Shown: piece after piece, positions 23,740 through 29,081 of the stretch
How positions within the stretch are numbered: position 1 is the first letter of the stretch
Layout: each line of letters begins with the position of its first letter
Source of the DNA: Thermoleophilaceae bacterium
GTDB taxonomy: Bacteria; Actinomycetota; Thermoleophilia; Solirubrobacterales; Thermoleophilaceae
Length of the DNA stretch: 42,147 bases
Direction of reading: 5' to 3'
NCBI GenBank assembly: GCA_030447905.1
Contig: JAUJNZ010000001.1
Span: 143,531-185,677 of the forward strand
Notes under the pieces: model-generated
Databases searched by the model: none
Told to the model about the DNA's origin: nothing
Seen by the model: only the letters and a program-made list of their open reading frames with translations
Made by a program: the position numbers and the translations under genes

Positions 23740-24543
23740 CTACCCGCTCGGCCGTGGCCCGGCGCGCTCCGCAGGCGCTTGGGGGGCGGGCATCGCCCCC
23801 TCGGCTTCTCGCCCGGTGTCTCCGAGCCGTGCCCGCGGCACACGCGGGATCACGCCCTCGCTCGAGAACATCTCCGGCGCCCGTGAGCCGGGCATGACGA
23901 CGACGCCCTCCTCCGGGTCGCCAAGCCAAGCCGCATGTCCGACCGCATACCGGTGCGCGCACAGCGCCGCCGCGGCGGCCTCGATCTCCTCGATGCGACG
24001 GCTCCAAAGGTCGCCGCCCGAGTCCTCGACGTGGCCCTCGGTCAGCTCGTCGATGCGGGTCAGCACCCCGAGCGGGTGGCGGCGCGCCGGCACGCGACGA
24101 CCCTCCAGGGCGCAGAAGACCGCGTCGATGTTGACCTCGAAGACGCCGGCCTCCCGAAAGATGCCGTCCTCGACGCGCCCCTCCTGCTCGCCTTCGGGTC
24201 CCACCGGCGCGTCGGTGGACACGTCCGGGACGAAGAGGCCGAGCTCCTCGAGCGCGTCGAACAGCGCGAAGCCCGTCTCGAGCGAGGCGCGCGGGCTAAC
24301 CCCCCGCCGGCGCAGAGCCGCGTCGCATACCCGCACCTGGCGGCCGTCCAGGGGATCTCCCTGCGGAGCCCCGATCGCCACCGCGATATCGCCAAGCGCC
24401 TCGAGCTCCTCGACGACCTCGGCCGGCGAGCCCGGCTCGTAGAACGTCGCGCGCAGGCGAATCGGAGGGTCGCCGGTGCGCATCTCCTCGAGTCGGCAGA
24501 GCTGCTGGAGCTCGCTGCCAACCGCTATCCCGCAATACCTCAC
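23740..24543 (-). CDS. DUF429-family protein (predicted RNase H-like fold)
   Basis: 267 residues from GTG 24543, which overlaps the dapL-like stop (GTGA). Recognisable DUF429 stretches: IAVAIGAPQGDP, then VRVCDAALRRRGVSP, FEVNIDAVFCALEGRRVPAR, and late HAAWLGDPEEGVVVMPG. DUF429 proteins are predicted RNase H-like nucleases of unknown role; the usual N-terminal first acidic strand is altered here (CGIAVGSELQQL), so activity is uncertain. The last 30 residues are Pro/Ala-rich. A longer frame to 24750 is antisense-like overlap with the aminotransferase and was rejected. Confidence 0.65.
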   Translation of the reverse strand: MRYCGIAVGSELQQLCRLEEMRTGDPPIRLRATFYEPGSPAEVVEELEALGDIAVAIGAPQGDPLDGRQVRVCDAALRRRGVSPRASLETGFALFDALEELGLFVPDVSTDAPVGPEGEQEGRVEDGIFREAGVFEVNIDAVFCALEGRRVPARRHPLGVLTRIDELTEGHVEDSGGDLWSRRIEEIEAAAAALCAHRYAVGHAAWLGDPEEGVVVMPGSRAPEMFSSEGVIPRVPRARLGDTGREAEGAMPAPQAPAERAGPRPSG

Positions 24544-25724
24544 GCCGCGCGTCCCTCCGCCGCCCCGAGGCTCGAGCGCAGGCGCTCGACGGCCTCGCAC
24601 AGCCGGTCGTCGTCGATCGTGAGCGAGATGCGGAAGAAGCCCTCGCCGTTGGGCCCGTAGGCCCCGCCCGGCGAGACCACGACCGCGGATTCCTCGAGCA
24701 CCTTCTCGCAGTAGGAGGCCGAGGAGTGCCCGGCGGGCACGGGTGCCCACACGTAAATCGTCCCCATGGGGGGCGTGACCGCGACGCCGATTTCGCGCAG
24801 CGCGTCACAGACGAGGTCGCGTCGGCGCTCGTACAACGCGCTCATCTCGCGCGCCGCCTCGTCGCCCTCGGGGGAGAGCGCGGCGGCGGTGGCGAGCTGG
24901 ACGGCCTCGAACATGCCCGAGTCGATGTTGGTCTTGAGGCGCCAGTAGGGCTCGAGCGCCGCGGCGTTGCCGACGATCGCGGCGGCACGCCAGCCGGTCA
25001 TGTTGTAGCCCTTCGAGAGCGAGAAGACCTCGACGCCCACCTCCTTGGCGCCCGGGGTGGCCAGGAAGCTCGGCGCGACGTAGCCGTCGAAGGTGGTCTC
25101 GGTGTAGGAGGCGTCGTGGACCACGAGCAGGTCGTGCTCGCGCGCAAAGGCGACGGCTTGCTCGAACAGACCCTCAGGAGCGACCGCGCCCGTCGGGTTG
25201 TTCGGGTAGTTGAGGTAGAGCAGACGGGCGCGCTCGCGAGCATCGGCGGGGATCGCCTCGAGGTCGGGAGCGAAGCCGCGTTCGGGCCGAAGCGGCATGA
25301 GGACCGGCTCGCCGCCCGCGAGCAGCGGTCCACCCGTGTAGACCGGGTAGCCAGGATCGGCGGCGAGGGCGACGTCGCCCGGATCGAGAAACGCGAGGTT
25401 GAGGTTGAAGATGCACTCCTTGGCCCCAAGCGCGGGCATGATCTCCGTTCCCGGGTCGAGCGTGACGCCGAAGCGGCGCGCGTAGAAGGCGGCGACTGCT
25501 TCGCGAAGCTCGGTCCGCCCGCGGTTCGAGGGGTAGCGATGCGTGCCCGGGTCGGCGGCCGCCCTGGCGAGGGCGTCGACCATGAGCGCGGGCGTGGGCG
25601 TGTCGGGATCGCCGATGCCGAGGCTGATCACGTCGATTCCCTGCGCGCGCTTTTCGGCGATCTTGCGCTCGAGCTCGGCGAACAGGTACGGCGGGATCCG
25701 GCTCAGGCGCTCACTCGGTTGCAT
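24540..25724 (-). CDS. dapL: LL-diaminopimelate aminotransferase-like class I aminotransferase
   Basis: PLP-dependent aminotransferase of 394 residues. In the DapL route it turns tetrahydrodipicolinate directly into LL-diaminopimelate. Seen: IPPYLFAELERKIAEKRAQG at the start, SLGIGDPDTPTP, GAKECIFNLNLAFLDPGD, YLNYPNNPTGAV (Asn-Asn-Pro cofactor contact), HDASYTETTFDGY, and the PLP lysine in SLSKGYNMTGWRAA. These match the DapL/MTH52-type class, and the adjacent dapF supports the assignment; related aspartate-type aminotransferases share much of it. ATG 25724 lies inside the end of dapF (14-base overlap), indicating coupling. Feeds peptidoglycan and lysine. Confidence 0.85.
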   Translation of the reverse strand: MQPSERLSRIPPYLFAELERKIAEKRAQGIDVISLGIGDPDTPTPALMVDALARAAADPGTHRYPSNRGRTELREAVAAFYARRFGVTLDPGTEIMPALGAKECIFNLNLAFLDPGDVALAADPGYPVYTGGPLLAGGEPVLMPLRPERGFAPDLEAIPADARERARLLYLNYPNNPTGAVAPEGLFEQAVAFAREHDLLVVHDASYTETTFDGYVAPSFLATPGAKEVGVEVFSLSKGYNMTGWRAAAIVGNAAALEPYWRLKTNIDSGMFEAVQLATAAALSPEGDEAAREMSALYERRRDLVCDALREIGVAVTPPMGTIYVWAPVPAGHSSASYCEKVLEESAVVVSPGGAYGPNGEGFFRISLTIDDDRLCEAVERLRSSLGAAEGRAA

Positions 25725-26571
25725 GCAACTCCTCCACGAGCTCGTCGCTGAGGGTGCCACGGTAAACCGGCAGCGCCCAGCCCGTCAGCCGCACGCCGAG
25801 GTCCTCGGAGACCTCGACTTCGAGGTCGCCGCCGTCGAGGTGCACGGTCACCGGGCTCTCGGCGCCCCGCAGGACCGCCGCGACGGCGGCGCCGCAGGCA
25901 CCTGTGCCCGAGGACAGCGTCTCCCCCACGCCGCGCTCGTAGATCCGCGCGGCGATCTCGGTCTCCGTCTCCTGCCGCCAGAACGACACGTTCGTGCGGT
26001 TCGGGAACAGGTCTGTATTGCCCTCGATCGGCGAGCCGAGCTCCTCCAAGTCGAGGTCCTCGAGCGGCGGCGAGTCGTCCGCTCGCACCTCGATCGCGCA
26101 CTGGGGGTTGCCGATCGAGACGTGCTGGAAGGGCAGCCTGCGTCCAGCCACGGTGATTACCCCGGCGCCGCCTTGGTCACCGGACGGAAAGTCGGGCGAG
26201 CGCAGCCGAGCCCGTCCCATGTCCACCGAGCACGTCGTCGATCCGGTGATCTGCGGCCGGATCTCACCCGCCGCGGTCTCGATCGAGAAGACGTCGTGCT
26301 CGACCCAGCCCGAGCGGCGCAGATAGAGGATGGCCTCTCGGGCGCCGTTGCCCGAGAGCTCGGCCTCCGACCCGTCGGGATTGAAGATCCGCAGGCGGGC
26401 GACGTAGCCCCGCTCCGACGGCTCGCTCAGGAGCAGCACGCCGTCCGAGCCGATGCCGGTGTGGGCGGCGCACAGCCGGCGCACGCGCTCTGCGGTCAGC
26501 TCGAAGGGAAGGTCCCCCTGCTCGACGATCAGGTAGTCGTTGCCGAGCGCCTGCCACTTCTCGAAGGTCAT
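25711..26571 (-). CDS. dapF: Diaminopimelate epimerase homologue with Ser at both catalytic Cys positions
   Basis: DapF interconverts LL- and meso-diaminopimelate using two opposed cysteines. This 286-residue protein has the family fold marks: WQALGNDYLIVE (substrate Asn in GND), FNPDGSEAELSGNGAR, VSIGNPQCAIEV and YERGVGETLSSGTGACG. Canonical DapF has Cys immediately before GNG (about position 73) and before GTG (about 217). Here both are serine: codon TCG at Ser73 and TCG at Ser221. The remaining Cys226 is the non-catalytic one of GACG. So it may be a Ser/Ser variant enzyme, a different racemase or epimerase, or inactive. ATG 26571 (MTFEKWQALG) was chosen over extension to 26625. dapL overlaps its end. 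Confidence 0.9.
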   Translation of the reverse strand: MTFEKWQALGNDYLIVEQGDLPFELTAERVRRLCAAHTGIGSDGVLLLSEPSERGYVARLRIFNPDGSEAELSGNGAREAILYLRRSGWVEHDVFSIETAAGEIRPQITGSTTCSVDMGRARLRSPDFPSGDQGGAGVITVAGRRLPFQHVSIGNPQCAIEVRADDSPPLEDLDLEELGSPIEGNTDLFPNRTNVSFWRQETETEIAARIYERGVGETLSSGTGACGAAVAAVLRGAESPVTVHLDGGDLEVEVSEDLGVRLTGWALPVYRGTLSDELVEELHATE

Positions 26572-26706: not shown

Positions 26707-27639
26707 CTATAGACATCCGGCGATCTCCTCGGCGACCTCGGCAGGGTCGCGCCCGGTCACGTCGATTCGCTTGACCCCGGCGAGCTTTCGCATCCACGTG
26801 AGCTGGCGCTTGGCGAGGTTGCGCGTGCGCCGCTCGAGCGCCTCGACCTCGCCGGCGAGCAGCTCCTCGAAGCCGAGTGCCGCGCGGGCCGTCGCGGAGG
26901 CGCCGGCGGCGGCGGCGCGACGTACCTCCTCTTCCGCCCCCGCGGCGACCATCTCCTGGACGCGCCGCTCGATCGCCGCGTAGAGCGCGCCGCGCTCGGC
27001 GATGAGGCCGACGAGCAGGGTCGGGCGGCGCGTCGCGCTCGTCCAGAGCTGGGACTTGCCGGATTCCGAGGGGACCGGGAGCGGGACCTCCCCGGTCTCG
27101 AGCAGCTCATGGGCACGGACTATCCGGCTGCGGTCGGCCGGGTCGATGCGAGCCGCGGCGTCGGGTGACCGGCGACCGAGCTCGGCGTGCAGGGCGGCTG
27201 GTCCGCGAGCAGCCAGGTCCGCCTCGACCCGCTCGCGAACGCCGGGACCGGGGGGCGGGCGCAGGTCGAGCTCGCTCAGGGCGGCGCGCAGGTACATGCC
27301 CGTTCCCCCGACGACGATCGGGCGCCGCCCGGCGGCCAGCGCGGCGTCGATCTCGCGGTGGGCGAGCGGCACGTACTCCCCCACGGAGAAGGTGGCGCTC
27401 ACCGGCACGGAGGCGACGAGGCGGTGCTCGAGGCGGGCCTGCTCGGCGGCGGTGGGGGCCGCGGTGAGGGTCTCGAGGCCCGCGTAGACCTGCAGGGCGT
27501 CGGCGGAGATCGCGACCGGGTCCTCTCCGAGCCCGCGCAGCCGCTCGCCCAGGGCGACGGCGATGGACGTCTTGCCGATTCCGGTCGGACCGAAGAGGGC
27601 GACGACCTCGGGGCGCCCCGCGGGCGCTGGATCGCTCAG
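26707..27639 (-). CDS. miaA: tRNA dimethylallyltransferase MiaA, probable CTG start
   Basis: MiaA adds dimethylallyl to N6 of A37 in tRNAs reading UNN codons, the substrate for MiaB. 310 residues from CTG 27639: P-loop LFGPTGIGKTS (15-25), SADALQVYAG (DAQ-type substrate motif), GGTGMYLRA (about 110-118), and the C-terminal RNLAKRQLTWMRKL. Starting at the first standard codon (27408) would remove the P-loop and about 77 essential residues. No ATG, GTG or TTG lies in frame between 27408 and the upstream gene. CTG 27639 overlaps the miaB stop (CTGA), the usual coupling geometry in this genome. Length fits the family well. Confidence 0.9.
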   Translation of the reverse strand: MSDPAPAGRPEVVALFGPTGIGKTSIAVALGERLRGLGEDPVAISADALQVYAGLETLTAAPTAAEQARLEHRLVASVPVSATFSVGEYVPLAHREIDAALAAGRRPIVVGGTGMYLRAALSELDLRPPPGPGVRERVEADLAARGPAALHAELGRRSPDAAARIDPADRSRIVRAHELLETGEVPLPVPSESGKSQLWTSATRRPTLLVGLIAERGALYAAIERRVQEMVAAGAEEEVRRAAAAGASATARAALGFEELLAGEVEALERRTRNLAKRQLTWMRKLAGVKRIDVTGRDPAEVAEEIAGCL

Positions 27640-29081
27640 AGCGCGGCGGAGAGGGCCCGCGCCTCGCCGGCGAGGGTGGTGCTGGTGGCGCCGGTGATCT
27701 CGACGCCGACGAGCTCCCCGGGCTGCGGTCGAGCGCTTACCTCCCCGGTGTCGGACCCCACATTTCCCAGACCGAAGTTTACCGTCTTGTTGTGGCGCGT
27801 GCGCCCGCGCAGGCGCGAAGGGTCGGTGCGGGAGGGTCCCTCCACGAGTACCTCCATGGTTCGACCGACGAACCGCTGTGCGCGCTCGGTGGCCCGCCGC
27901 TGAACGGTCTCGACCAGCCGGTCCATCCGCTCCCGCTTGGCCGCGTGTGGGAGCTGACCGTCCATGCCGGCGGCCTCGGTTCCACGCCGCGGCGAGAACA
28001 GGAACGTGAACGCCGAGTCATAGCCGACCTCCTCGACCAGCGACAGCGTCTGCTCGAAGTCGTCGTCGGTCTCGCCGGGGAAGCCGACGATGATGTCGGT
28101 GGTGAGCGCACAGTCGGGCACGTGGTCCCGGATCAGTGCCACCCGATCGAGGTAGCGCTGGCGGTCGTAGGTCCGGCGCATGGCCTTGAGCATGCGGCTC
28201 GAGCCCGACTGCAGCGGCAGATGGATGTGCTCGCAGAGCGCCGCCAGCTCCGCGTGGGCGCGAACGACGTCCTCGCGCATGTCCTTGGGGTGCGGGCTCG
28301 TGTAGCGGATGCGGTCGATGCCCGCGACGGCATCGACGGCAGCCAGCAGCTCGGCGAAGGTGACCCTCTGGTCGCGGGGTAGGTCGCGGCCGTAGGAGTT
28401 GACGTTCTGGCCGAGCAGGGTCACCTCGCGCACGCCGTCGGCCGCGAGGCGCTCGACCTCTCCCACGAGCTCGCCGGGCGGTCGGCTGGCCTCGCGCCCA
28501 CGCGTCGAGGGGACGATGCAGTAGGCGCAGCGGCAGTTGCAGCCGACCGAGATCTGCACCCACCCCTGGAACTCGCGCGCCCGCTTCATCGGCAGGTGCC
28601 CGGAGAAGCCCTCGAACTCGAAGTAGCCCTGCGCGGTCAGCGAGTCGCTCGTCAGGAACTCGGCCAGCTTCGGGATCTGGCCCGGGCCGAAGGCGACGTC
28701 GACGAACGGGAAGCGCTCGAAGACGCGCTCCTTCATCGACTGCGACCAGCACCCGCCCACCCCGACGACGCGCGCCGGATCCTCTCCCTTGAGCCGCTTG
28801 GCCTCACCGAGGTGGGCGACGAAGCGGTTGTCGGCCGACTCCCGGATCGAGCAGGTGTTGAAGAGGATCAGGTCCGCCTCGTCGCGCGCGGGGGCCTCGC
28901 GGTAGCCGAGCGACTCGAGCATGCCCTTCATCCGCTCGGAGTCGTGCTCGTTCATCTGGCAGCCGAAGGTGGTGAGGTGGTAGCGCTTCGGGATTCCCTC
29001 TCTCGGGTACGCTCGCTTCGCTCGCTCAGGGAGCCCCTCGATAGGGAACCCCTTCGCGCGGCCATCGTCGATCGACCTCAC
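27636..29081 (-). CDS. miaB: tRNA-2-methylthio-N6-dimethylallyladenosine synthase MiaB
   Basis: Radical-SAM methylthiotransferase that converts i6A37, the product of MiaA, to ms2i6A37. 481 residues: UPF0004 domain with FGCQMNEHDSERM, FNTCSIRESA and VGGCWSQ (three cluster cysteines), radical-SAM motif GCNCRCAYCIVPSTRG (Cys-x3-Cys-x2-Cys, about 180-195), and a C-terminal TRAM domain (RTMEVLVEG to LVGVEITGA). The N-terminus carries about 33 extra residues before YHLTTFGCQMNE; GTG 29081 is the only start found for them. Downstream miaA overlaps its stop; rny ends 9 bases upstream, so the three form a unit. Confidence 0.95.
   Translation of the reverse strand: MRSIDDGRAKGFPIEGLPERAKRAYPREGIPKRYHLTTFGCQMNEHDSERMKGMLESLGYREAPARDEADLILFNTCSIRESADNRFVAHLGEAKRLKGEDPARVVGVGGCWSQSMKERVFERFPFVDVAFGPGQIPKLAEFLTSDSLTAQGYFEFEGFSGHLPMKRAREFQGWVQISVGCNCRCAYCIVPSTRGREASRPPGELVGEVERLAADGVREVTLLGQNVNSYGRDLPRDQRVTFAELLAAVDAVAGIDRIRYTSPHPKDMREDVVRAHAELAALCEHIHLPLQSGSSRMLKAMRRTYDRQRYLDRVALIRDHVPDCALTTDIIVGFPGETDDDFEQTLSLVEEVGYDSAFTFLFSPRRGTEAAGMDGQLPHAAKRERMDRLVETVQRRATERAQRFVGRTMEVLVEGPSRTDPSRLRGRTRHNKTVNFGLGNVGSDTGEVSARPQPGELVGVEITGATSTTLAGEARALSAAL

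What the first reader, a model, noticed from the sequence alone, without database searches (positions are those of the whole stretch)
25711..26571. DapF homologue in which both catalytic cysteines are serine
The sequence shows ELSGNGAR and TLSSGTGACG where DapF requires Cys-Gly-Asn-Gly and Cys-Gly-Thr-Gly. Both codons are TCG on the coding strand, and both lie in otherwise intact motifs, so base-calling error is unlikely. Known DapF uses a two-thiol mechanism and Cys-to-Ser mutants are reported to be badly impaired. The gene overlaps a dapL-like gene, so it should be the epimerase of the DapL route. It may be a natural Ser/Ser epimerase, a changed specificity, or a relic.
Basis: partly seen in the sequence, partly recalled or inferred. 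Interest (0 to 1): 0.62.

Follow-up and report, generated by a model that had tools for sequence, protein, structure and literature searches.

The report
Serine-for-cysteine cell-wall epimerase, DapF
An essential bacterial enzyme that is thought to need two cysteines to flip an amino acid for cell walls and lysine has two serines instead in this genome, in every sampled member of its order and in some other Actinomycetota groups, which suggests that the textbook mechanism is not the only one.

Summary
The gene at 26571-25711 (- strand) is the only DapF of its genome, scores well above the DapF equivalog cut-off, and has Ser73 and Ser221 (both TCG) at the two catalytic Cys sites. It is not a one-off. 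All ~60 distinct DapFs read from this order (Solirubrobacterales), all 33 read from family f7 and all 4 from f11 are Ser/Ser, encoded by both TCN and AGY codons. Elsewhere in the phylum Ser/Cys, Cys/Ser and further Ser/Ser forms occur; on the DapF tree the state changes at least 13-14 times. All other DAP-contacting residues and the fold are kept, the gene sits in miaB-miaA-dapF-dapL, LysA is present in 47/47 genomes searched, the Ddh bypass passes its cut-off in none, and cell walls of this order contain meso-DAP (published). The best reading is a working DAP epimerase with a natural serine pair as acid/base (inferred, not assayed). Loss of the inhibitory Cys-Cys disulfide known from C. glutamicum DapF is a plausible reason (speculative). 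Relic and base-call error are excluded; changed specificity is unlikely. This is a new mechanistic variant of a known enzyme: Ser/Cys has precedent in 4-hydroxyproline epimerase, and I found no report of a Ser/Ser DapF.

The parts
25711..26571 (-). dapF orthologue, 286 aa, both catalytic cysteines replaced by serine
   Evidence: TIGR00652 202.7 bits > cut-off 114.65; PF01678 139 bits; sole copy; AlphaFold2 model pLDDT 95.3, best PDB matches all DapF
26353..26355 (-). codon TCG of Ser73 (H. influenzae Cys73, Anabaena Cys75)
   Evidence: just before helix 74-86 in the model
25909..25911 (-). codon TCG of Ser221 (H. influenzae Cys217, Anabaena Cys224)
   Evidence: just before helix 222-234 in the model
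26101..26103 (-). codon CAG of Gln157, His in every Cys-containing DapF aligned and in the Ser/Ser forms of other families; Gln in 59/59 of this order
24540..25724 (-). dapL-like LL-diaminopimelate aminotransferase gene, start ATG overlaps the dapF stop by 14 nt
   Evidence: NF006756 523.9 bits > cut-off 507, TIGR03540 512 bits but below its cut-off 593; overlap; same neighbour in most relatives
26707..27639 (-). miaA upstream of dapF (start probably CTG at 27639, overlapping the miaB stop)
   Evidence: PF01715/TIGR00174; frame open to miaB with P-loop GPTGIGKT
27636..29081 (-). miaB-like gene, conserved neighbour upstream of miaA
   Evidence: name from the sequence and from family knowledge, no family scan run on it; the neighbour recurs in the loci

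Best explanation
The gene encodes the genome's DAP epimerase. It makes meso-DAP (D,L-DAP) from the LL-DAP delivered by the neighbouring DapL, for peptidoglycan and for lysine through LysA, and it does so with a serine pair in place of the usual thiol/thiolate pair. Shown here: Ser/Ser at the two catalytic sites, lineage-wide conservation, retained DAP-binding residues and fold, synteny, sole copy, LysA present, no Ddh over its cut-off. Inferred: Ser73 and Ser221, at the N-termini of helices 2 and 4 where backbone amides and the helix dipole lower the pKa of the Cys in known DapFs, act as alkoxide/hydroxyl base and acid on opposite faces of the alpha-carbon. Speculative: the exchange was favoured because it removes the Cys-Cys disulfide that inactivates Cys/Cys DapF on oxidation, which replacement at either site achieves; that would explain why Ser/Cys, Cys/Ser and Ser/Ser all exist.
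For: Sole DapF in the own genome and in Svornostia abyssi, Solirubrobacter phytolaccae and four other relatives (the extra hits are 12-13 bits with a stop inside). LysA, which needs meso-DAP (family knowledge), found in 47/47 genomes, 46 over the cut-off; Ddh over its cut-off in 0/47. MurE over the cut-off in 13/13 genomes, with the TSDNPR motif seen in 12 of 13. [quoted passage not shown] The side-chain DAP contacts of Anabaena DapF (PMC12039745), N13, N66, N77, N164, N197, E215, R216 and T226, are conserved in 59/59 sequences of the order. dN/dS 0.18-0.27 among close relatives. Synteny miaB-miaA-dapF-dapL shared with Cys/Cys DapFs of the class. Model: both serines sit directly before the two central helices, pLDDT 95; closest PDB entry 9mro, closed Anabaena DapF, TM 0.86-0.88. 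Precedent for a natural Ser base in this fold: 4-hydroxyproline epimerase B9K4G4 with Ser93/Cys255 (PMC4113996). Natural Ser/Cys and Cys/Ser DapFs occur. Redox inactivation of C. glutamicum DapF by a Cys83-Cys221 disulfide and H2O2 (PMC5296763).
Against: Engineered Cys-to-Ser enzymes of the fold are badly impaired: PddB under 0.1%, with the same reported for M. tuberculosis DapF (PMC8225329); F. nucleatum HisR greatly reduced (PMC11602996). The hydroxyl pKa of about 16 against about 10 for a thiol makes a free Ser a poor base at neutral pH. No activating residue unique to the Ser/Ser forms was found; in this order the nearby His is even lost to Gln. No activity has been measured. The redox argument is not strict: aerobic actinobacteria such as C. 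glutamicum keep Cys/Cys.
Confidence: 0.8

Rival explanations
1. DapF has lost epimerase activity. An unidentified, non-homologous enzyme makes meso-DAP, and the Ser/Ser protein is kept for another role, such as binding DAP, regulation, or a scaffold with DapL.
For: Engineered Cys-to-Ser enzymes are nearly dead. The order has further coordinated active-site changes: H->Q157, W->F/Y211, A->S220.
Against: It needs the same replacement in at least three groups (this order with f7/f11, f46/f49, and the f40/f26 paralogues) and partial loss in many Ser/Cys and Cys/Ser lineages. The known bypass Ddh is absent. Catalytic-site neighbours and DAP contacts stay conserved. Replacement is always by Ser, never by Ala or Gly, in the sampled sequences.
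Confidence: 0.1
2. The enzyme has changed substrate or reaction: racemase of another amino acid, or a one-sided proton exchange or elimination, as in Ser/Thr or Cys/Thr members of the proline racemase superfamily.
For: DapF relatives have become histidine, O-ureidoserine and diaminobutyrate racemases. In the proline racemase superfamily, changes of the catalytic pair go with changed reactions in some clusters.
Against: All residues that bind the distal zwitterion of DAP (N64, N155, N194, E212, R213) are invariant in the order. The gene is paired with dapL, and the genome has no other DapF for LysA and MurE. It scores as the DapF equivalog.
Confidence: 0.07
3. Relic or sequencing artefact.
For: Only that the canonical catalytic residues are missing.
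Against: About 60 distinct Ser/Ser sequences in the order from independent assemblies, including a complete Svornostia abyssi chromosome; both Ser codon families used; dN/dS 0.18-0.27; intact frame and operon.
Confidence: 0.01

Closest known systems
Canonical two-thiol diaminopimelate epimerase DapF (H. influenzae, Anabaena 9mro, A. thaliana 3ejx, C. glutamicum 5h2g; TIGR00652)
   Same: Sequence (36% to Anabaena and A. thaliana), fold, DAP-contacting residues, helix N-terminal placement of the catalytic side chains, synteny in the class
   Different: Both catalytic Cys are Ser; in this order the neighbouring His (HiDapF 159) is Gln
Ser93/Cys255 4-hydroxyproline 2-epimerase B9K4G4 (Avi_7022), proline racemase superfamily (PMC4113996)
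   Different: Other family and substrate; only one of the two bases is Ser, the other is still Cys
Engineered HiDapF C73S (2q9h) and C217S (2q9j)
   Same: Same residue positions carry Ser; among the closest PDB folds
   Different: Artificial single mutants made to trap the open form; here both sites are Ser naturally, with other nearby changes
C. glutamicum DapF (PMC5296763)
   Same: Actinobacterial orthologue
   Different: Its Cys pair forms an inhibitory disulfide (redox switch), which a Ser/Ser enzyme cannot form

Membership tests
DapF (TIGR00652 equivalog, sequence family) | Score above the curated cut-off over the full length | tested here: met
   202.7 vs 114.65 bits, residues 1-275, profile 1-269/270
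DapF (TIGR00652 equivalog, sequence family) | Residues that bind both zwitterionic ends of DAP | tested here: met
   N11, N64, N75, N155, N194, E212, R213, T223 equal Anabaena N13, N66, N77, N164, N197, E215, R216, T226
DapF (TIGR00652 equivalog, sequence family) | DapF fold, catalytic side chains at the N-termini of the two central helices | tested here: met
   Model pLDDT 95.3; helices 74-86 and 222-234; the 26 best PDB matches are DapF apart from O-ureidoserine racemase 7vdy
Two-thiol (Cys/Cys) DAP epimerase, mechanistic class | Catalytic cysteine 1 (HiDapF Cys73) | tested here: not met
   Ser73
Two-thiol (Cys/Cys) DAP epimerase, mechanistic class | Catalytic cysteine 2 (HiDapF Cys217) | tested here: not met
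   Ser221
Diaminopimelate epimerase (EC 5.1.1.7), activity | Interconverts LL-DAP and meso-DAP | not testable with these tools
   Indirect support only: sole DapF, LysA and MurE present, no Ddh
DapL route of lysine/DAP synthesis | LL-DAP aminotransferase beside or in the genome of this dapF | tested here: met
   NF006756 above its cut-off, TIGR03540 below its stricter one; neighbour conserved in most relatives

The most novel reading that the evidence does not exclude
A cofactor-independent amino-acid epimerase that works with two serines, hence without any thiol, is the normal housekeeping enzyme of whole bacterial lineages. The catalytic pair of DapF has switched between Cys and Ser repeatedly in the phylum (all four combinations exist), possibly under selection to remove an oxidation-sensitive disulfide.
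Probability: 0.75. Interest if true: 0.75.

Novelty: new variant of a known kind. Interest (0 to 1): 0.64.

Why it matters
DapF is the model for how a weak thiolate can pull a proton of pKa about 29 from an amino acid, and it is a drug target whose covalent inhibitors (aziDAP) attack the cysteines. Whole lineages that make meso-DAP with no Cys in the active site would show that the two-thiol mechanism is not obligatory. They would also provide natural Cys/Cys, Cys/Ser, Ser/Cys and Ser/Ser enzymes with which to measure what each thiol contributes, and should be insensitive to thiol reagents, aziDAP and peroxide. Annotation pipelines call these proteins ordinary DapF, so the trait is hidden.

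Tried and rejected
Base-calling error or chance: rejected (independent relatives, both codon families). Second Cys-type DapF: none in the own genome or six relatives. Ddh bypass: none over the cut-off in 47 genomes; sub-threshold hits under 30 bits. Relic: rejected by dN/dS and conservation. Selenocysteine or recoding: rejected because ordinary Ser codons of both kinds are used. A single origin of Ser/Ser in the class: the best tree interleaves Cys/Cys lineages (f5, f10), but the AU test does not reject one clade (p 0.37), so the number of origins inside the class is open. A search of the phylum of a Kordiimonas genome for the site-2 Ser motif found 0 of 349, against 58 of 396 in Actinomycetota; the pattern demands neighbouring residues, so this is a lower bound. 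Literature: no report of a natural Ser DapF found, but only open-access papers were searchable. Plasmid search: only ordinary distant DapF, under 60% identity. I did not have model coordinates, so Ser-Ser distance and Gln157 geometry were not measured.

Full report
What is there. The - strand ORF 26571..25711 encodes a 286-aa DapF. Pfam PF01678 (139 bits) and the NCBI equivalog TIGR00652 (202.7 bits, cut-off 114.65) both cover it fully. At the two catalytic positions it has serine: Ser73 in AELSGNGAR and Ser221 in GETLSSGTGACG, both TCG. It lies in miaB-miaA-dapF-dapL, with a 14-nt overlap between dapF and the dapL-like gene. It is the only PF01678 gene in a 2.58-Mb, 95%-complete genome.

How widespread it is. 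A scan of genome contigs gave 52 close relatives from Thermoleophilia/Solirubrobacterales (or MAGs not classified further); all have Ser at the first site and all with a readable second site have Ser there too (one is masked). Reading DapF from whole genomes of the class showed Ser/Ser in every sampled member of this order (59 distinct), of family f7 (33) and of f11 (4), but Cys/Cys in f5, f6, f8, f10, f12 and most of f9. Genus g51 of f9 contains Ser/Cys enzymes. Across the phylum Cys/Ser is found in families f15, f23, f36, f44 and f50. Ser/Cys occurs in f19, f26, f27, f33, f34, f56 and f75, and Ser/Ser with one Ser/Cys in f46/f49. Among 213 distinct DapFs, chosen partly by motif and so not a frequency estimate, there are 105 SS, 60 CC, 31 CS and 15 SC. 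With the two columns left out of the tree, the pair needs at least 14 changes (13 in the careful subset tree); site 1 needs 10 and site 2 needs 9. Whether the three Ser/Ser groups of the class have one origin is unresolved (AU p 0.37). In a phylum outside Actinomycetota, reached through a Kordiimonas genome, the site-2 Ser motif was found in 0 of 349 genomes.

Why it is not an error or a relic. Relatives encode the serines with TCN and AGY codons, dN/dS between close relatives is 0.18-0.27, and only Ser or Cys was ever seen at the two sites, never Ala or Gly.

Why it is probably still a DAP epimerase. The residues that hold DAP in Anabaena DapF (PMC12039745) are retained without exception in the order. 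The model (pLDDT 95.3) is closest to closed Anabaena DapF 9mro and places both serines directly before the two central helices, as the cysteines are in known DapFs. LysA was found in 47 of 47 genomes, MurE in 13 of 13, and the alternative meso-DAP route Ddh over its cut-off in none of 47. Cell walls of Solirubrobacterales contain meso-DAP (PMC3035278; PMC10722151). Two named relatives, Svornostia abyssi and Solirubrobacter phytolaccae, have a Ser/Ser DapF and no second one. From DapL onward no other known enzyme can supply the D-centre (pathway knowledge), so either the Ser/Ser enzyme works or an unknown enzyme does.

How it may work. In known DapFs one thiolate removes the alpha proton and the other thiol returns it to the opposite face. 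Engineered single Cys-to-Ser enzymes of this fold keep less than about 0.1% (PMC8225329) or greatly reduced activity (PMC11602996). Yet a natural 4-hydroxyproline epimerase with Ser93/Cys255 catalyses the two-base reaction (PMC4113996). I infer that the serines act as alkoxide/hydroxyl pair with second-shell adaptation. The changes specific to this order (His to Gln157, Ala to Ser220, Trp to Phe/Tyr211, Met to Leu72) are candidates, but f7 and f11 keep the His, so Gln157 is not required for a Ser/Ser site. The driving force may be oxidation: C. glutamicum DapF is inactivated by a disulfide between its two catalytic cysteines (PMC5296763), which replacement of either Cys prevents. That is speculation consistent with independent replacement at each site.

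Comparison and novelty. By sequence, fold, synteny and substrate pocket it is a DapF orthologue. It fails the defining feature of the two-thiol mechanistic class at both sites, so I do not file it there; it probably works like it. No paper found describes a natural Ser-type DapF, within an open-access library only. I rate it a new variant of a known kind, with activity the missing proof.

Noticed in passing
window 27639-27408 (-): miaA has no ATG/GTG/TTG before its P-loop; the frame is open up to the miaB stop, and a CTG at 27639 overlapping that stop may be the start codon (translational coupling).
   Followed up: partly
window 23740-24750 (-): ORF downstream of dapL without a Pfam or NCBIfam hit, yet conserved at 39-87% identity in relatives such as L034, L033 and L100.
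   Followed up: no
L205 and L206: Second DapF-like paralogues in genomes that also have a Cys/Cys DapF; they are Ser/Ser with SGTG changed to SATG or SAAG, a candidate for a changed function.
   Followed up: no
L050, L079, L080 and many f7 loci: Here the dapF neighbour is not dapL but an opposite-strand aminotransferase of about 35% identity, suggesting a different LL-DAP route or a dapL elsewhere.
   Followed up: no
L019, L022, L023, L025, L028: Ser/Cys DapFs inside one genus (g51) whose other members are Cys/Cys: natural near-isogenic pairs for enzymology.
   Followed up: partly
G310, G324, G380: Near-complete actinobacterial genomes of families f24, f31 and f45 with no DapF at all, possibly lineages with Lys- or Orn-type walls.
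   Followed up: no
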